This document shows, piece by piece, positions 1,520-20,830 of a stretch of DNA of 37,857 nt (position 1 is the first letter of the stretch; every line of letters begins with the position of its first letter). The stretch is taken from the NCBI RefSeq assembly GCF_005435165.1, contig NZ_SGUC01000030.1:1-37857 (forward strand), read 5' to 3'. Source of the DNA: Halorubrum sp. GN11_10-6_MGM (GTDB taxonomy: Archaea > Halobacteriota > Halobacteria > Halobacteriales > Haloferacaceae). The position numbers and the translations under genes are program-made. The notes under the pieces are model-generated. The model searched no databases and was not told the origin of the DNA. It was given only the letters and a program-made list of their open reading frames with translations.

Positions 1520-2758
1520 ATGTACTACGCCTACAAGTATCGTCTCAAGCCGTCCGATGCCCACCGCGAGGAGTTGGACCGCCACCGAGACATTTGTAGG
1601 CAACTGTACAACCACACGCTCTACCGACTCAACGAGTACCAAGACGAACACGGCGAACTGCCGTCCATGACCACGCTACGGTCGGAAATCCCCGACCTCC
1701 AGAACTGGTGGGACGACCTCTCGGACGTGTACTCGAAAGTGCTCCAAACCGTCGTGGAACGCCTGTTCGACAACCTCAAAAGCCTCTCCAAACTCAAAGA
1801 GAACGGCTACGGCGTCGGCCAACTCAAGTGGAAGCCGCCACGGAAGTTCCGCAGTTTCACGTACAGTCAGTCTGGCTTCAAGCTCGACAAGAAGGGCGGT
1901 CAGACTGTCCTCTCACTCTCGAAACTCGCGGACATACCGATTCGGCTTCACCGCGCCATCCCCGACGACGCGACGCTCAAACAGGTCACGGTCAAGAAGG
2001 AACCGACGGGCGAGTGGTTCGCCACGTTCGGCGTCGAAATGGACCGAGAACCGCCCGAGCCGCCCGAGAATCCCGAACGGTGTGTCGGCATCGACGTGGG
2101 AATTCTCAAGTACGCCCACGACACCGACGGTACGGCAGTCGGGTCGCTCGACCTCTCGGACGAACGGGAACGACTGGAACGTGAACAGCGGTCCCTCTCA
2201 CAGAAAGAACACGGATCGAACAACTGGAAGCAACGGCAACGGGTCGCTGAGTGTCACGCCGACCTGCGACGGAAGCGGCGCGACTTTTTACACAAACTCT
2301 CGGCGTACTACGCCCGAGAGTACGACCTTGTGGCCGTCGAAGACCTGAACGTGAAGGGGATGCTCGAATCACCGTCGAACAGCCGCAACACGGCGTCTGC
2401 CGCGTGGCAGACATTCCTCTCGTTGCTCGAATACAAGTGTGAGCGAGAGGGGACGCACTTCGTGGCGGTCAACCCGAGAGGGACGACCAAGGAGTGCGCG
2501 TCGTGCGGCGTTTCGACCGATAAGCCGTTGTGGGTCCGTGAACACGCCTGTCCCGCCTGCGGGTTAGAGGTGGACCGGGACGCGAATGCGGCGTGGAACA
2601 TCCTTTCTCGCGGCCTCAAAGACGTAGGAGTGGGACACTCCGAATCAACGCCTGTGGAGACTGCGCTCTCTGTGGATACGCCTGTATCTGCAAAGCACGT
2701 CGTAGAAGCAGGAAGCCCTACCCTCAAGGAGCGAACACGCGGTGAGCGAGTAAGGTAG
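1520..2758 (+). CDS. tnpB: TnpB RNA-guided nuclease (IS605 OrfB), copy 1
   Basis: A 412-residue TnpB, typical length. The RuvC residues all appear present: Asp192 in GIDVGILKYA, Glu274 in VAVEDLN and Asp354 in DRDANAAWN. A four-cysteine zinc ribbon (C326, C329, C344, C347) sits between the second and third. TnpB proteins are guided by an RNA made from the element's right end and cut the empty donor site, helping element retention. Its stop TAG (2756-2758) lies inside the right-end inverted repeat, so the 3' end of the gene doubles as non-coding RNA sequence. It is clearly related to the copy at 17242-18528, with the catalytic core conserved and the C-terminal 30 residues divergent. Confidence 0.95.
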   Translation: MYYAYKYRLKPSDAHREELDRHRDICRQLYNHTLYRLNEYQDEHGELPSMTTLRSEIPDLQNWWDDLSDVYSKVLQTVVERLFDNLKSLSKLKENGYGVGQLKWKPPRKFRSFTYSQSGFKLDKKGGQTVLSLSKLADIPIRLHRAIPDDATLKQVTVKKEPTGEWFATFGVEMDREPPEPPENPERCVGIDVGILKYAHDTDGTAVGSLDLSDERERLEREQRSLSQKEHGSNNWKQRQRVAECHADLRRKRRDFLHKLSAYYAREYDLVAVEDLNVKGMLESPSNSRNTASAAWQTFLSLLEYKCEREGTHFVAVNPRGTTKECASCGVSTDKPLWVREHACPACGLEVDRDANAAWNILSRGLKDVGVGHSESTPVETALSVDTPVSAKHVVEAGSPTLKERTRGERVR

Positions 2759-2790
2759 GGTAGTTCACACGCACCGGAAGGGGATCGTCG
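2640..2790 (+). ncRNA. candidate omega/re-RNA of tnpB copy 1
   Basis: In this family the guide RNA overlaps the 3' end of tnpB, runs through the right end and takes its guide from the flank. The tail of tnpB here is unusually conserved at the DNA level with copy 2 (CCTCAAGGAGCGAAC and GTGAGCGAGTA blocks) and folds by a 7-bp inverted repeat. The guide would be roughly 2772-2790 (CACCGGAAGGGGATCGTCG). Haloarchaeal sense-overlapping transcripts at tnpB 3' ends are known. The 5' boundary is a guess. Confidence 0.45.
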
Positions 2791-2816
2791 GCGTCGACCT
2801 CGACTCGCGGAGCGAC

Positions 2817-4103
2817 TCAGTCGATCCGAAGCTCGCGCTTCTCCGCGACCGCCTCGGCCTCCGGGAAGTCGCCGCCGCCGAGCAGCCCGCGGGCCGCCTT
2901 CTTCCCCCACTCGACCGCGGGCTGGGTGAACGTCGAGACGCTCGCGAGCTCGCCGTACAGCACGCAGGCGGACTCCATCCCGAACAGGAGCTCGCCGAGC
3001 GCCCGCTCGTCGACGCGGTCGATCTCGACGCGCACGTTGGGGACGCCGGCGGCCGCGAGGCTCGCCTCCGTCGCCTCGAACTCCGCGTCGAGGAGCCCGC
3101 CGAGCGACGAGCCGCCGAGGTACGCGAGCCCGTCGAGGTCGGTCTCCGGAATCTCGACCGCGGCGCGTTCGGTGGGCCGGATAAGGGAGATCAACTTGTC
3201 CGGCGGCCCGGCGCGGTACAGCTGGAGCTGGGAGTGCTGGTCGGTGGCGCCGAGCGCGCGCGCCGGCGTCTGCCCCAGTCCGTCCTTCCCGAGGCTCTCG
3301 GCCCACAGCTGGGCGAACCACTCCGCGAACGTCTCCAGCGACTCCGCGTACGGCATGACGGCGTTCGTGCGCGCGCCGCGCTCCGCGAGCGCGTACGTCG
3401 CCGCGCCGTAGGCGTAGGCGGGCGACTCGTACAGCGAGCCCGCGAGCGATTCCATCCCGTCGCGCCCCCCGGCGAGGACGGCCTCGACGTCGTGACCCTG
3501 GAGCGCGGCGACCGCGAGGCCGACCGTCGAGAGCGCGGAGAAGCGCCCGGGAACGCCGTCGGGGACCGGGAGCGAGGGGAGGTCGTGGCGGTCGGCCAGA
3601 TCGCGGAGGTTCCCCGACTCGCCCGTGGTGACGAGGGTGCGCTCGGTCCAGTCGACGCCTGCGTCGGCCATCGCCTCGCGCACGACGAGGAAGTTCGCCA
3701 GCGTCTCCGCCGTCGTCCCCGACTTCGAGACCACGTTGACGACGGTGTCGCCGAGCGGGAGGTCGGCGAGCAGGGCCCGGGTGTCGTCGGGGTCGACGTT
3801 GTCGAGGACGTAGGCGTCCACGTCGCTTTCGAGGGCGTTCGACAGCGTCGCCGCGCCGAGCGCGCTGCCGCCGATACCGACCGTCAGCACGGCCTCGGGG
3901 CGGTCGAAGCTATCGACCGCGGCGCGGATAGCGTCCGGGTCCGCGGTCTCGGGGAGGGTCAGGGCGGCGTACCCGAACTCGTCGTCCGCCATCCCGGCCG
4001 CGATCCGCTCGTGCGCGGCCGCGACGCGGTCGTCGAGCCTGTCCAGCGTCGCCGTCGTGAGCCCGGGAGTCGTCTCCAGGGCGTTGCCGAGGTCCACTCG
4101 CAT
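2817..4103 (-). CDS. pgi: glucose-6-phosphate isomerase
   Basis: A 428-residue phosphoglucose isomerase interconverting glucose 6-phosphate and fructose 6-phosphate in the cytosol. The SIS-type sugar-phosphate motifs are present: GIGGSALGA (about residues 76-84), SKSGTTAET (126-134), an ESLGKDG segment, the TDQHSQLQLY block with the probable catalytic His, and the C-terminal EWGKKAA Lys signature. The frame stays open upstream to 5285, but that part is antisense to the DoxX-like gene. The ATG at 4103 (MRVDLGNALE) gives the expected family length and follows a short AT-rich stretch (GCGACTTAAAAACAG read from the opposite strand) suitable for a promoter. Haloarchaea use this enzyme in gluconeogenesis and in feeding the semi-phosphorylative Entner-Doudoroff route. 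Confidence 0.95.
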   Translation of the reverse strand: MRVDLGNALETTPGLTTATLDRLDDRVAAAHERIAAGMADDEFGYAALTLPETADPDAIRAAVDSFDRPEAVLTVGIGGSALGAATLSNALESDVDAYVLDNVDPDDTRALLADLPLGDTVVNVVSKSGTTAETLANFLVVREAMADAGVDWTERTLVTTGESGNLRDLADRHDLPSLPVPDGVPGRFSALSTVGLAVAALQGHDVEAVLAGGRDGMESLAGSLYESPAYAYGAATYALAERGARTNAVMPYAESLETFAEWFAQLWAESLGKDGLGQTPARALGATDQHSQLQLYRAGPPDKLISLIRPTERAAVEIPETDLDGLAYLGGSSLGGLLDAEFEATEASLAAAGVPNVRVEIDRVDERALGELLFGMESACVLYGELASVSTFTQPAVEWGKKAARGLLGGGDFPEAEAVAEKRELRID

Positions 4104-16624: not shown

Positions 16625-16833
16625 GTCGTTGTCCGACCTACGTGGTCGCTCGTAAATGAACCCCGCGGCTGGTGGCGCGCGATGAACACGACCGCTAACC
16701 GCCCGCAGGGTGCGCCCAGCGGCCGTGACCGGGCCCCGCTCCGGATTCGGTTCGGTGGACGAACGTCCGGTACCTCCGTGGTACCGCGACCCTCGCAAGG
16801 GTTATCCCCGGCCCGGCTGTGTGTTTATTCGCA

Positions 16834-17040
16834 ATGGCAAACGGTAAGGTTGATTTCTTCAACGACACTGGCGGCTACGGTTTCATCTCGACTGACGACG
16901 GCGACCTCGACGACGACGAAGACGTGTTCTTCCACATGGAAGACGTCGGCGGCCCGGACCTCGAGGAGGGTCAGGAAGTGGAGTTCGACATCGAATCGTC
17001 CCCCAAGGGACCGCGCGCGACGAACCTCGTCCGCAACTAA
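16834..17040 (+). CDS. cspA: cold-shock domain protein
   Basis: A 68-residue single cold-shock-domain protein. The OB-fold nucleic-acid motifs are present: NGKVDFFNDTGGYGFIS (RNP1-like) and DVFFHMEDV (RNP2-like). It binds single-stranded RNA or DNA as an RNA chaperone. It is acidic in the DDGDLDDDED loop, as common in halophiles. The ATG at 16834 (MANGKVDFF) is preferred to the GTG/ATG-like codons upstream. AAGGGTTATCC (about 16796-16806) is a possible TATA region about 30 bp upstream. Confidence 0.96.
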   Translation: MANGKVDFFNDTGGYGFISTDDGDLDDDEDVFFHMEDVGGPDLEEGQEVEFDIESSPKGPRATNLVRN

Positions 17041-17204
17041 CCCCCACGTAGCGGACGGCGCGTCCGCACGCACTACCGGATTTCGGCCGTCGCTCGACGC
17101 GATCGACGCCTATCTCCGTTTCTCTCACACTTATCACCGCTCGACGAGCGATAGCGTTTCCCTCGGTGAGCGACGCTTCGTTTGACAAGCGGCGCGCATC
17201 GACC

Positions 17205-17350
17205 CGTCGTCGCCGCGATCGACCGTGTGAACTACCCCACCCTACTCGCTCACGGCTGACGCCGTTCGCTCCTTGAGGGTGTCGTCAGAACTCGGAGAGT
17301 TCTGACTGCTAACCAGAAGTCTGCGACTTCTGGTGATGGGGCTTCCTGTT
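17205..17350 (-). ncRNA. candidate omega/re-RNA of tnpB copy 2
   Basis: By analogy with copy 1, the guide RNA should cover the 3' part of this tnpB, the right end, and a guide of roughly 17223-17205 on the minus strand. Two strong hairpins (17313-17333 and 17285-17305) and a third weaker one (ACGGC-GTCA-GCCGT near 17252-17265) would be in this transcript. Boundaries are inferred. Confidence 0.4.
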
Positions 17351-18528
17351 TCCACGACGCGCTTTGCAGATACAGGTGTATCCGCAGGGAGCGCAGTCTC
17401 CACAGGCGGTGATTCGGAGTGTCCCACTCCTACTTCGTCAAGACCGCGAGAAAGGATATTCCACGCCGCATTCGCGTCTCTGTCTGCCTTGAATCCACAC
17501 GACGGACACGAATGCTCACGCACCCACAACGGTTTGTCCGTCTCCGTTCCGCACGACGTACACTCTTTGGTCGTGCCTCGGGGGTCTACGGCAATGAAGT
17601 GCGTGCCTTCGCGTTCGCACTTGTATTCGAGCATTCGCAGGAACGTTCCCCACGAGGCCCCGCCTCGATTCCGAGAGTTGCCGGGGAGTTCAACCAATCC
17701 CTTCGCATTTAAATCCTCAACGGCCACAAGGTCGTACTCACGGGCATAGTAGTTCGATAATTTGTGGAGGAAGTCTCGGCGCTTCCGTTTCAGGTCGGCG
17801 TAACGTTGGGCAACCGTCTTACGTTGTTCTTCCCAGTTGTTTGAGCCGTGTTCCTTCCGAGAGAGTTCACGTTGGGCACGTTCCAATCGTTCGCGCTCGT
17901 CGGAGAAATTTGGTGACTCGACAGCGGTTCCGTCCGTATCATGTGCGTACTTCAGGATACCAACGTCAATCCCAACGACTCTCTCTGGATTCTCCGACTT
18001 CTCAGGAATGCTTTCGTCTACGTCGATGCCGAACGTAGCGAACCACTCGCCCGTAGGTTCTTGTTTGACCGTGACCTGTTTGATGGTCGCGTTCTCGGGG
18101 ATGTCTCGGTGAAGGTGAATCGGTATCTCACCGATTTTGCTCAACCACAGGACAGGCCGACCACTCGTATTCTCGAGTTCGAAGCCGGACTGGTTGTAGG
18201 TGAGCGACCGATACTCCCGAGGCGGCTTCCACTTGAGCATCCCTACGGCGCGTCCGTTCTCCTTCTGTGCTTTGAGTGTAGAGAGGTTGTCGTAGACGCG
18301 TTTGACGACCATCTGTAACACTTTCGAGTGAACGTCGTTCAGGTCGTCCCACCACGATTTGAGGTCGGGGAGCGTTCCCTGTACCTTGTAGCGGGCTGGA
18401 ATCTCGTCGGTCTCGTTGAGTTTGTAGAGGACGTGATTGTAGAGTTGCCTACAAGTATCGACGTGATGTAGAAGCGTCTCGGAGAGGGCTTCTGGTGGCT
18501 CGAGTCGATACTTGTAGTTGTAGTGCAT
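17242..18528 (-). CDS. tnpB: TnpB RNA-guided nuclease, copy 2
   Basis: A 428-residue TnpB. The RuvC triad appears intact: Asp188 in GIDVGILKYA, Glu271 in VAVEDLN and Asp351 in DRDANAAWN, with zinc cysteines C323, C326, C341 and C344. It is strongly similar to copy 1 but is not a recent duplicate, since divergence is spread through the protein. Near the C-terminus, after VETGSP, it has about 19 extra residues (ITRSRRLLVSSQNSPSSDD) translated from two 9-bp-arm hairpins missing in copy 1. The ATG at 18528 directly follows the TAG of the small ribbon-helix-helix ORF, so the two are coupled. Confidence 0.94.
   Translation of the reverse strand: MHYNYKYRLEPPEALSETLLHHVDTCRQLYNHVLYKLNETDEIPARYKVQGTLPDLKSWWDDLNDVHSKVLQMVVKRVYDNLSTLKAQKENGRAVGMLKWKPPREYRSLTYNQSGFELENTSGRPVLWLSKIGEIPIHLHRDIPENATIKQVTVKQEPTGEWFATFGIDVDESIPEKSENPERVVGIDVGILKYAHDTDGTAVESPNFSDERERLERAQRELSRKEHGSNNWEEQRKTVAQRYADLKRKRRDFLHKLSNYYAREYDLVAVEDLNAKGLVELPGNSRNRGGASWGTFLRMLEYKCEREGTHFIAVDPRGTTKECTSCGTETDKPLWVREHSCPSCGFKADRDANAAWNILSRGLDEVGVGHSESPPVETALPADTPVSAKRVVETGSPITRSRRLLVSSQNSPSSDDTLKERTASAVSE
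17285..17333. repeat. twin perfect hairpins inside tnpB copy 2
   Basis: Two palindromes, each with 9-bp arms and a 3-nt loop: TCAGAACTC-GGA-GAGTTCTGA (17285-17305) and CCAGAAGTC-TGC-GACTTCTGG (17313-17333). They lie in the 3' coding end of tnpB and in its predicted guide-RNA region, and correspond to an insertion relative to copy 1. Confidence 0.9.
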
Positions 18529-18654
18529 CTATGACTCTCGTTCCTCGATGAGTTCGTCCAGTTTCTCTTGGACGAACGAGGAGAGGTTCAGGTGGTTGTC
18601 CTGAATCCACTCCTCTTGCTCGTCGCGGATGGAGATGTTTTTGCGAGTCGTCAC
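18529..18654 (-). CDS. 41-aa ribbon-helix-helix (CopG-like) protein
   Basis: A short ORF starting with GTG at 18654 and ending with TAG (18531-18529) that touches the tnpB ATG. It reads VTTRKNISIRDEQEEWIQDN followed by HLNLSSFVQEKLDELIEERE and a final Ser. The basic beta strand (TRKNISI), a first helix (RDEQEEWIQDN) and a second helix after NLSSFV match the ribbon-helix-helix fold of small DNA-binding repressors and antitoxins. Two strong features support it: its exact coupling to tnpB and an AT-rich promoter-like stretch (TATTTGTGTATTTTGTG, 18681-18665 minus) just upstream. A role in repressing the element is inferred. Confidence 0.8.
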   Translation of the reverse strand: MTTRKNISIRDEQEEWIQDNHLNLSSFVQEKLDELIEERES

Positions 18655-18770
18655 AACACACTATACACAAAATACACAAATAAGAGTTGCGATTACGTGG
18701 GCCTGTGGGTCGGTTGTCGCGGAGTGTTTGGAAGACTATGACGGCGCTGTATCCCCTCCCTACTGCGCCC

Positions 18771-18817
18771 TCAGAACGCGAAGCGTTCTGATGTGCGAAC
18801 GAGAGCTTGCTCTCGTT
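18771..18817. repeat. twin perfect hairpins in left end of copy 2
   Basis: TCAGAACGC-GAA-GCGTTCTGA (18771-18791) and AACGAGAGC-TT-GCTCTCGTT (18798-18817) each have 9-bp perfect arms. They occupy the loop of the conserved left-end stem. The first resembles the right-end hairpin at 17285-17305 (both begin TCAGAAC and end TTCTGA). Copy 1 has neither. Confidence 0.9.
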
Positions 18818-18841
18818 AACGCTACTCGGTCGCTTCGCACC

Positions 18842-18872
<31 letters not shown>

Positions 18873-18877
18873 GCCTG

Positions 18878-18890
18878 AATACATAAATAC
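18878..18890 (+). promoter_or_regulatory. radB TATA box
   Basis: AT-rich ATACATAAATACG lies 25-34 bp upstream of the radB GTG start, the position expected for a leaderless haloarchaeal mRNA. The tnpB element ends about ten bases further upstream, so the core promoter survived the insertion but everything beyond it is element sequence. Confidence 0.7.
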
Positions 18891-18912
18891 GAGCGCGGGC
18901 AAGTCCTCACCA

Positions 18913-19620
18913 GTGAGCGATCCGATCCCGACCGGCTGTCGCCCGGTCGACGAGCTGTTGGGCGGCGGCTTCGAGCGCGGCGTCGTCACGCAGGTGTACG
19001 GGCCGCCGGCCGCGGGGAAGACGAACCTCGCGCTCGCCGCGGCGGTCGAAGTCGCCGCCGGCGGCGACCGCGCCCTCTACATCGACACCGAGGGGCTCTC
19101 GATCGACCGCTTCGAGCAGTTGGCGGAGGGACGCCTCGACCGGGACGACGCGGACGAGGCGGTCGAGGAACTCGCCTCGCGGCTCGTCATCTCGGAGGCG
19201 TACGACTTCGACGACCAGCGCGAGGCGGTCCGCGACGCCGAGGAGCTCGCCGAGGAGGTCGAGCTGATCGTGTTGGACTCCGCGACGGGATTCTACCGAC
19301 TGGAGCGCGCCGGCGACACCGAGGGCGGCGAGTCGCTCCGCAAGGTCGCGAAACAGGTGACGCACCTCCTCTCTTTAGCCCGGCGCCACGACGTCGCCGT
19401 CGTCATCACGAATCAGGTGTTCACCGACCCCGACGGCGACCGCGACCGCGCGCTCGGCGGCAACACCCTCAACCACTGGACCGGCGCGATCGTCCGCGTC
19501 GACCGGTTCCGCGGCGGGAACCGACGAGTGACCCTCGAAAAGCACCGGTCGAAGCCCGCGGGCGACACGGCCACGTTCCGGATCGTCGCCGACGGGCTCG
19601 CGGAGGGAGCGGACGGGTAA
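18913..19620 (+). CDS. radB: DNA repair and recombination protein RadB
   Basis: A 235-residue RecA-family ATPase of the euryarchaeal RadB type, a RadA paralogue that assists homologous recombination. The Walker A motif is GPPAAGKTN near residue 31, preceded by the family GCRPVDELLGGGFERG start. Walker B is ELIVLDSATGFY and ITNQVFTD follows. The N-terminal HhH domain of RadA is absent, as usual. The GTG at 18913 (VSDPIPTGC) is preferred over an in-frame ATG at 18847, because that ATG is inside the mobile element and would add 22 unrelated residues. Confidence 0.95.
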   Translation: MSDPIPTGCRPVDELLGGGFERGVVTQVYGPPAAGKTNLALAAAVEVAAGGDRALYIDTEGLSIDRFEQLAEGRLDRDDADEAVEELASRLVISEAYDFDDQREAVRDAEELAEEVELIVLDSATGFYRLERAGDTEGGESLRKVAKQVTHLLSLARRHDVAVVITNQVFTDPDGDRDRALGGNTLNHWTGAIVRVDRFRGGNRRVTLEKHRSKPAGDTATFRIVADGLAEGADG

Positions 19621-19690
19621 CCGCCCGGCCGACGGCAGGAGTCACGAGAAAGAAGTTCGGTCGTCGGTCCGCCGCTCGGCACCTACCGGC

Positions 19691-20830
19691 TCACAGCTCG
19701 CCGAGCTTGCGGAGGAGCTGGCCGCGGTACTCCTCGTCGGCGTTGACGCCCTTGATCTCGAGGACGTTGCGCTCTAGCTTGTCGAGCGCGACGTGGAACG
19801 CGTGTTCGGCGCCGTACCCTTCGCCGGAGCCGCCGACCTGCCCCTCGTTGGTGCGGAGGCGGATCTGACACTGGATCAGGGGCGTGCCGCGGAGTTTCTC
19901 CTTGTGCGCGTGGAGCCGGACGTGCGCGTGGATGACGTGCATGTCCGCGTACTTGTCCGCGACCTGTTCGATGGACTCGACGATGTGCTCGCGGCTGGTA
20001 CCCTCCAGCAGGTCGACGTTGGTGATCTGGACGTCCATCGAGTCCTCCTCGGTGAACGTGAGCGCGCGCAACACGTCGGTCTTCGTCACCATCCCGGCGA
20101 CGGTGTCGGCGCCCTCTGGCGTGACGACCAGCCCGGAGACGTCGTTGTCGAACATGCGCTCGACGACCTCCTGTGCGGTTTCGTCGTTCGTCGCCGTGAC
20201 GACCGGGCTGGACATGATGTCGTAGACGGGGATGTCCAGCATGCGGTCGATGTCGCCGGCGCGGTCGCCGCTGCCCTGCCGCTCCTGGTCGCGGACGACG
20301 AACTCCACGATGTCGTTGGTGGTGACGACGCCGACGAGGTCGCCGTCGTCCCCGAGGACGGGGAGCCGAGAGACGCCGTTCTCGCGGAGGCGGTTGATCG
20401 CGCGGCCGACGCTCTCCGTCTCGCCGATACCGATCACGTCCTCGGTGGCGATCTGGCCGACGGTGATCGCGTCGAGGCTGTCGATGACGGCCTCGAGGAT
20501 CTGGTCGACCGTGACGATGCCGTAGAGCTTCTCGCCCTCGTAGACGGGCGCGATCTTCACGTCGCCCTCGACGAGGAGCCGGGCGGTCTCGCGGACGTCC
20601 TCGTGGCGGTCGACGGAGGGCGCGGGCTTCATCACCGCGGACACCTTCGTGTCGTCCTCCATGCGCGAGCGCATGAGCTGTTTCTCCCCGACGACGCCCG
20701 CGTACTCGCCGTCCTCGACGACGACGATCCCCTTCGGGTTCTCTCGCTCGAAGATAGAACGGACCTTGGCGAGACGCTCGTCGACGTCGACCTCGACGTA
20801 TTCCGGCACTGCGATATCAGAGATGTTCAT
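19691..20830 (-). CDS. four-CBS protein with ribosome-hibernation-like C-terminus
   Basis: A 379-residue protein with two Bateman modules: four CBS repeats over about residues 1-270 (VRSIFERENPKGIVVVEDG; DVKIAPVYEGEKLYGIVTV; GVSRLPVLGDDGDLVGVVT; DVSGLVVTPEGADTVAGMV). CBS pairs sense adenosine nucleotides in many families. From residue 275 a separate domain begins (MDVQITNVDLLEGTSREHIV) with alternating strands and helices resembling the S30AE/HPF fold of ribosome hibernation factors, ending in a helix with EHAFHVALDKLERNV. An energy-sensing, ribosome-associated role is inferred. Archaeal CBS-domain ribosome-dimerising proteins have been reported, but I cannot verify orthology. It converges on radB. 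Confidence 0.8.
   Translation of the reverse strand: MNISDIAVPEYVEVDVDERLAKVRSIFERENPKGIVVVEDGEYAGVVGEKQLMRSRMEDDTKVSAVMKPAPSVDRHEDVRETARLLVEGDVKIAPVYEGEKLYGIVTVDQILEAVIDSLDAITVGQIATEDVIGIGETESVGRAINRLRENGVSRLPVLGDDGDLVGVVTTNDIVEFVVRDQERQGSGDRAGDIDRMLDIPVYDIMSSPVVTATNDETAQEVVERMFDNDVSGLVVTPEGADTVAGMVTKTDVLRALTFTEEDSMDVQITNVDLLEGTSREHIVESIEQVADKYADMHVIHAHVRLHAHKEKLRGTPLIQCQIRLRTNEGQVGGSGEGYGAEHAFHVALDKLERNVLEIKGVNADEEYRGQLLRKLGEL

What the first reader, a model, noticed from the sequence alone, without database searches (positions are those of the whole stretch)
18529..18654. A ribbon-helix-helix mini-gene fused by start/stop contact to tnpB
The 41-codon GTG ORF ends with TAG exactly abutting the tnpB ATG and occupies the place of tnpA. 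It looks like a CopG-type DNA-binding protein. It may repress tnpB and its element, or the ends of other copies, giving an element with nuclease plus repressor but no transposase.
Basis: partly seen in the sequence, partly recalled or inferred. Interest (0 to 1): 0.5.

Follow-up and report, generated by a model that had tools for sequence, protein, structure and literature searches.

The report
Self-repressing TnpB element without transposase
A small mobile element in salt-loving archaea carries an RNA-guided DNA cutter together with a tiny DNA-binding protein that very probably turns down their shared promoter, which would explain how elements that lack a transposase keep their nuclease in check.

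Summary
The 41-codon GTG ORF (18529-18654, minus) ends in TAG abutting the tnpB ATG. It is a real gene: relatives occur in 148 of 391 genomes of the class; in 88 of 90 inspected loci it lies within 7 nt of a tnpB start; in-frame pN/pS is 0.16. It is probably a minimal ribbon-helix-helix (RHH) protein, though profile evidence is weak. Its promoter carries three 6-bp boxes at 9-bp steps (18655-18678) between a TATA-like element and the start codon; direct repeats at lag 9 are strongly enriched over the family (z 21.5). In close TnpB relatives the slot holds RHH, DUF2080 or TnpA, never two; DUF2080 loci carry an 11-bp repeat instead (z 15.7). Box sequence follows the two variable strand residues of the RHH. 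The element has defined ends and empty sites in relatives. Best explanation: the RHH autorepresses the RHH-tnpB-guide-RNA operon. The operator occurs once in this genome, so repression of other copies here is not supported. New variant of IS1341-type elements; no binding or expression data.

The parts
18529..18654 (-). RHH mini-gene (41 aa, GTG start, TAG stop abutting tnpB)
17242..18528 (-). tnpB, RNA-guided endonuclease, 428 aa; candidate RuvC residues D188, E271, D351 and zinc-ribbon cysteines C323, C326, C341, C344 invariant among 7 relatives (roles of the residues recalled)
18655..18660 (-). operator box 3, TGTGTT, directly before the GTG start
18664..18669 (-). operator box 2, TGTGTA
18673..18678 (-). 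operator box 1, TGTGTA
18679..18684 (-). TATA-like element CTTATT(T), about 25-30 nt upstream of the GTG; a leaderless mRNA is inferred
   Evidence: class consensus; function inferred
18685..18883 (-). left end of the element; conserved core CAGGCGCTAAGTCCCC begins at 18877; outer edge about 18883 (plus or minus 2)
17227..17300 (-). right end; conservation stops after GTAGTTCAC whose last base is 17227; the guide part of the predicted guide RNA would follow outside. This range overlaps the tnpB 3' part and the insert at 17280-17337.
   Evidence: guide RNA inferred from established TnpB biology
17280..17337 (-). 58-nt double-hairpin insert in the tnpB 3' part / presumed guide-RNA scaffold region, absent from the 7 other copies aligned
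18769..18820 (-). 52-nt double-hairpin module in the left end, present in some copies only (also L105, L107)
18884..18890 (+). insertion site: TATA-like TTTAAATAC in front of a Rad51-family gene (about 18913-19620 +); uninterrupted in relatives

Best explanation
The mini-gene is an autorepressor. Its 41-aa product very probably forms RHH dimers whose beta-ribbon reads 6-bp TRYRYA boxes. Two or three dimers sit side by side on boxes 9 bp apart, between the TATA-like element and the start codon, and block transcription of the RHH-tnpB operon, whose 3' end should also be the precursor of the TnpB guide RNA. The abutting stop/start couples translation of the two proteins. The element is thus a transposase-less, IS605-type unit with a nuclease and its own brake; TnpA made by sibling elements with similar ends probably moves it. 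Shown (by sequence): the gene, the pair, the boxes, their spacing, their link to the RHH gene, the element ends and the empty sites. Inferred: fold, binding, repression, coupling, guide RNA, mobilisation in trans.
For: Coding and pairing. Slot: RHH, DUF2080 or TnpA, never two, in 114 TnpB loci (48 RHH, 58 DUF2080, 4 TnpA, 4 none of which L007, L145 and L212 are truncated; copies of one locus from two collections are not removed). A further 19 full-length TnpB loci of the genus at 60% identity or more gave 9 TnpA, 4 RHH, 4 DUF2080, 2 none; 21 at 48-55% gave no partner. Operator: TRYRYA pairs at 9-10 bp in 81 of 111 RHH upstream regions (shuffles 4.9) against 4 of 48 DUF2080 regions (0.4). Motif-free repeat spectrum: lag 9 z 21.5 for RHH; lag 11 z 15.7 and lag 9 z -0.9 for DUF2080. 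Partner swaps: at least 18 changes on the TnpB tree, 5 forced by starred branches, so the repeats go with the partner gene, not with tnpB. Specificity: of loci with strand RKNIS 41 of 43 have TGTGTA/TACACA upstream, of RKTIS 0 of 26. Residues 4, 7, 10, 13, 16, 24, 25, 27, 32, 33, 36, 37 are invariant among 63 distinct sequences, whereas strand positions 6 (N/T) and 8 (S/T) vary. RelB, an RHH repressor, reads hexads [A/T]TGT[A/C]A, and Ser/Thr at the start of helix 2 is conserved in such proteins (PMC2812701, passages); here S25 is invariant.
Against: No binding, expression or translation data. AlphaFold2 on 19 relatives gave one continuous helix 11-40 (pLDDT 82, pTM 0.40), not strand-helix-helix; an obligate dimer modelled as a monomer may explain this (PMC4803016, passage, says minimal RHH proteins would be mostly disordered as monomers). 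No family model passes its cut-off: CcdA E 0.049 for this copy, best 0.002, in 12 of 18 family members. hhalign against haloarchaeal PF01402 members: probability 16%, 20 column-shuffled controls 0.07-13%. Boxes and gene are immediate neighbours and can move together, so their link could partly be hitch-hiking; on well-supported branches only 6 independent pairs exist, median 5 concordant, 0 opposite, 1 tied, p about 0.06. The TRYRYA pattern was made after seeing the data (the lag test was not). 30 of 111 RHH loci lack a strict 9/10-bp pair.
Confidence: 0.72

Rival explanations
1. Antitoxin-like module: the RHH protein binds TnpB (or its ribonucleoprotein) and inhibits the nuclease directly, besides autoregulating the operon, as type II antitoxins do.
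For: Weak similarity to the antitoxin family CcdA; bicistronic small-gene-first order; both alternative small partners could belong to antitoxin-type DNA-binding classes (RHH; DUF2080 as AbrB-like is recalled, not tested); antitoxin DNA-binding domains are HTH, RHH or SpoVT/AbrB (PMC4803016, passages).
Against: At 41 aa the protein is about the size of a bare RHH domain (CopG 45 residues per protomer, PMC4803016 passage), with no tail for a toxin. The 48-55% identical TnpBs of the same genus show none of the three partners. Partner genes swap on closely related TnpBs.
Confidence: 0.1
2. Transposition accessory factor: the RHH protein takes part in strand exchange or end recognition in place of TnpA.
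For: It sits in the tnpA slot, and elements with it have moved.
Against: At 41 aa it is too small for a known transposase domain. The boxes lie at the promoter, and the triple-box pattern is not at the element ends or elsewhere in the genome. Sibling TnpA elements share the end motifs.
Confidence: 0.05
3. Activator or promoter-architecture protein: the RHH raises rather than lowers tnpB transcription.
For: Only binding is suggested by the sequence; RHH proteins can activate (recalled).
Against: The boxes lie between the TATA-like element and the start codon, box 3 touching the start codon; occupation there should block polymerase.
Confidence: 0.08
4. Relic ORF: a chance or decayed reading frame without function, kept only by linkage.
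For: It is mostly unannotated: of 28 plasmid records with a match, 17 have no listed gene there (that gene table is incomplete).
Against: pN/pS 0.16, in-frame stops in 2 of 111, junction kept in 88 of 90.
Confidence: 0.02

Closest known systems
IS1341-type (TnpB-only) members of IS200/IS605 elements in haloarchaea
   Same: tnpB without tnpA, defined left and right ends, many diverse copies (PMC3119063 passages).
   Different: Carries a conserved small RHH gene in the tnpA slot with its own promoter repeats; no such gene is mentioned in the passages read.
DUF2080 family transposase-associated protein (PF09853 / NF033496)
   Same: Small protein in the same slot directly upstream of the same TnpB clade, with its own promoter-proximal repeats.
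   Different: Unrelated sequence; repeat period 11 rather than 9 bp; already named by NCBI, while the RHH gene matches no NCBIfam model.
RHH repressors of small operons (CopG, Arc, RelB, CcdA)
   Same: Length, strand pattern, invariant serine at the start of helix 2, tandem hexamer boxes at the own promoter; RelB hexads are [A/T]TGT[A/C]A (PMC2812701 passages).
   Different: The downstream gene is an RNA-guided nuclease, not a toxin or replication protein; sequence similarity is below all family cut-offs.
TldR (TnpB-derived RNA-guided transcription factors)
   Same: A TnpB-family protein linked to transcription control (PMC13418256, abstract in listing).
   Different: Here the presumed repressor is a separate RHH protein and TnpB keeps its candidate catalytic residues.

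Membership tests
Ribbon-helix-helix (CopG/Arc/MetJ) superfamily | Match to a curated RHH family model over its cut-off | tested here: not met
   Only sub-cut-off CcdA (12 of 18 members, best E 0.002; cut-off 22.4 bits); no NCBIfam model; no relevant PDB sequence
Ribbon-helix-helix (CopG/Arc/MetJ) superfamily | Strand-helix-turn-helix sequence pattern with polar strand residues and Ser/Thr capping helix 2 | tested here: met
   R4, I7, R10, S25, F27, L32, I36 invariant in 63 distinct sequences; pattern judged by eye against PF01402 members
Ribbon-helix-helix (CopG/Arc/MetJ) superfamily | Predicted fold | tested here: inconclusive
   AlphaFold2 monomer shows one helix 11-40; hhalign to haloarchaeal PF01402 members 16%, controls up to 13%
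Ribbon-helix-helix (CopG/Arc/MetJ) superfamily | Tandem or inverted short boxes at the own promoter | tested here: met
Ribbon-helix-helix (CopG/Arc/MetJ) superfamily | Dimer that binds DNA by a beta-ribbon | not testable with these tools
   needs protein
IS1341-type element of IS200/IS605 | TnpB with RuvC and zinc-ribbon residues, no TnpA in the element | tested here: met
IS1341-type element of IS200/IS605 | Defined ends, and an uninterrupted insertion site in relatives | tested here: met
   exact edges uncertain by 1-2 bases
IS1341-type element of IS200/IS605 | Right-end guide RNA | tested here: inconclusive
   Rfam search of 16800-19700 gave no guide-RNA family; conserved right end present
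Type II toxin-antitoxin module | Antitoxin with a toxin-binding tail, and a toxin-family partner | tested here: not met
   41 aa, bare domain length; partner is TnpB, not a toxin family; toxicity not tested

The most novel reading that the evidence does not exclude
These elements use an exchangeable slot: in one TnpB clade the gene before tnpB is a transposase or one of two unrelated DNA-binding autorepressors, each with its own operator of a different step (9 or 11 bp). The repressor makes a zygotic-induction switch: on entry into a naive cell TnpB and its guide RNA are made in a burst, then shut down. Two strand residues of the RHH set operator classes that act as immunity groups between incoming and resident elements.
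Probability: 0.3. Interest if true: 0.8.

Novelty: new variant of a known kind. Interest (0 to 1): 0.6.

Why it matters
Many haloarchaeal tnpB copies have no tnpA next to them; genome analysts called this unusual and suspected stringent copy-number control without naming a device (PMC3119063 passages). A small repressor with a visible operator is a concrete candidate and makes the question testable with one promoter and one 41-codon gene. If right, transposon nucleases of the kind from which Cas12 arose are under transcriptional autorepression in archaea. The match between two strand residues and box sequence, if binding confirms it, offers a natural set for reading how RHH proteins choose DNA.

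Tried and rejected
Ends of other copies as targets: the triple-box pattern with up to 3 mismatches occurs once in this genome (control, the pattern read backwards: 5). Fold by AlphaFold2: one helix, not informative; no fold search was run on it. PDB by sequence: nothing relevant. Rfam: no guide-RNA family in 16800-19700. Phage records: no RHH match. PADLOC: no hit for the RHH; TnpB hits Cas12f/u-type models, as expected of relatives. A fused RHH-TnpB suspected from a 623-aa open frame (G221) was not found: at L044 the RHH stop lies 3 nt before tnpB.

Rows dropped: 28 loci with broken or truncated TnpB were left out of the tree, and near-copies over 97% were merged. Four RHH loci (L119, L142, L146, L175) and one DUF2080 locus (L207) had no anchor and are not in the upstream counts. 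Several DUF2080 upstream regions are mis-anchored (by eye L140, L143, L202, L208) and were not removed. The further RHH hits beyond the loci read were not inspected. Loci of one genome held in two collections are counted twice; near-identical upstream regions were merged.

Literature: no report of an RHH gene paired with tnpB was seen in the ten searches made of an open-access library that lacks most subscription papers. Papers were seen as passages only, or as abstract starts in listings.

Full report
Observation. The downstream gene is a TnpB nuclease whose candidate RuvC residues D188, E271, D351 and zinc-ribbon cysteines are invariant among seven relatives (their roles are recalled).

Is it a gene? 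The 41-aa sequence finds relatives in 148 of 391 genomes of the class and 50 of 86 genera. I read 90 loci: the window, the 29 best-scoring hits and 60 further listed hits of my choice. In 88 of 90 the stop lies -4 to +7 nt from the tnpB start. pN/pS is 0.16 in frame and above 2 in the other frames; 2 of 111 copies have an in-frame stop in the part tested. It is real and under purifying selection.

What else sits in that slot. Of 114 TnpB loci (5 of this genome, 80 from genome contigs, 29 from the genus), 58 have DUF2080, 48 RHH, 4 TnpA and 4 none; none has two. Three of the four without a partner are truncated (L007, L145, L212). NCBIfam names the DUF2080 genes 'DUF2080 family transposase-associated protein' (E 2e-17 to 6e-19, 4 of 4 given); it has no model for the RHH gene. 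In a further genus sample, 19 loci at 60% identity or more gave 9 TnpA, 4 RHH, 4 DUF2080, 2 none; 21 loci at 48-55% had none of the three. So the slot belongs mainly to one TnpB clade; exceptions exist: L073 (RHH with a TnpB 32% identical) and an Actinarchaeum pair (47% RHH identity, overlapping the start of an annotated transposase). On a tree of 142 TnpBs the partner label needs at least 18 changes, 5 of them forced by well-supported branches (many branches are weak): partners have been swapped repeatedly.

The promoter. Upstream of the RHH start lie three 6-bp boxes at 9-bp steps: TGTGTA-TTT-TGTGTA-TAG-TGTGTT-GTG in the window (18655-18678), just after a TATA-like CTTATT(T). Across 111 non-redundant RHH loci, 81 have a TRYRYA pair at 9 or 10 bp (4.9 in shuffles); of 48 DUF2080 loci 4 do (0.4). 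That pattern was drawn up after looking. A repeat spectrum that knows no motif gives the same answer: direct repeats peak at lag 9 for RHH (z 21.5; lag 11 z 4.1) and at lag 11 for DUF2080 (z 15.7; lag 9 z -0.9). Box 1 may be flipped to TACACA at the same place (e.g. L015, L035, L047). Related elements with different partner genes thus carry different repeats, as expected if each small protein reads its own operator.

Specificity. Strand positions 6 (N/T) and 8 (S/T) are the main variable strand residues. Loci with RKNIS have TGTGTA or TACACA within the 36 nt upstream in 41 of 43 cases, RKTIS in 0 of 26, RKNIT in 4 of 21, RKTIT in 2 of 20. Box 2 is TGTGTA in 37 of 43 RKNIS loci; RKTIS has mostly TACGTA or TGCATA, RKNIT mostly TGCGCA or TACGCA. 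With relatedness taken into account the trend always goes one way but is thin: on supported branches six pairs, median 5 concordant, 0 opposite, 1 tied, p about 0.06; within S8 loci only three pairs. Gene and boxes are close neighbours, so joint transfer is a partial alternative.

Fold. The sequence has the RHH look: RKNISIR strand, short helix, LNLSS turn with an invariant serine, then SFVQEKLDELIEER. Support from models is weak: CcdA below cut-off in 12 of 18 members, hhalign 16% against up to 13% in shuffled controls, and an AlphaFold2 monomer with a single helix, which speaks against or is uninformative. I put the RHH fold at about 0.85.

The element. Ten left ends were chosen and nine aligned; they share a core from CAGGCGCTAAG (18877) inward and differ outside. 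Of 14 right ends chosen, 8 could be aligned; they share sequence up to TAGTTCAC, ending at 17227 in the window, and differ after it. With the element cut out, the flanks match contiguously in 30 of 43 other genomes of the genus; eight read in detail show GATCGACC-[AG]TTTAAATAC-GA uninterrupted. The element is therefore about 17227-18883 and sits in the TATA-like stretch before a Rad51-family gene. TnpA-bearing siblings L004 and L006 and the DUF2080 element L003 of the same genome share the end motifs (L005 shares only the right one), so TnpA in trans is plausible, not shown.

Mechanism. The most economical reading is autorepression of the RHH-tnpB operon: boxes between TATA-like element and start codon, a gene of minimal repressor size in first place, translational contact with tnpB, and operator identity that follows the protein's strand. 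Because the TnpB guide RNA is made from the TnpB mRNA in a studied system (PMC10278001, title and abstract start in listing; processing of such RNAs in haloarchaea, PMC8303175 passages), one repressor would set both nuclease and guide. The operator pattern occurs once in this genome, so other copies here are not targets.

What is known. Haloarchaeal tnpB copies without tnpA are long known and were called unusual, with suspected copy-number control (PMC3119063 passages). Post-transcriptional control of such genes by SmAP1 and antisense RNA has been proposed (PMC10134880 passages). In H. lacusprofundi one paper took a 118-aa upstream ORF, similar to a TnpB N-terminus, for a possible TnpA (PMC10544981 passages); that is another locus. 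I saw no report of the RHH gene in the ten searches made.

Verdict. Observation confirmed; interpretation partly supported and enlarged. New variant of a known kind, with a clear and cheap test.

Noticed in passing
window 17280-17337: 58-nt double hairpin (z -6.9) inserted near the tnpB 3' end, in the presumed guide-RNA scaffold; the 7 other copies aligned lack it. A similar insert sits in the left ends of L020 and L107. It may be a small mobile repeat and may harm this copy's guide RNA.
   Followed up: partly
window 18769-18820: 52-nt double-hairpin module (z -4.6) in the left end, present also in L105 and L107 but absent from most other copies aligned.
   Followed up: partly
window 1520-2818 (+) with tnpA just upstream (L005): A second TnpB element in the window, 68% identical, with an adjacent tnpA; its tnpB frame has one internal TAG.
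   Followed up: no
upstream of DUF2080 genes, e.g. L121, L144, L159: DUF2080 partner genes have 11-bp direct repeats (such as GTCTATCCATA GTCTATACATC) between a TATA-like stretch and the start, suggesting a second, unrelated autorepressor in the same slot.
   Followed up: partly
window 18884-18890 and left flanks of L016, L019, L020, L021, L105, L107, L110: Left ends follow TTTA/TTAAC-like stretches; in the window this is the TATA-like element in front of a Rad51-family gene, so insertions may favour archaeal promoters.
   Followed up: no
L073 (G316) and L295 (Actinarchaeum plasmid): RHH gene next to other TnpBs (32% identical in L073), hinting that the RHH module also moves between TnpB lineages.
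   Followed up: no
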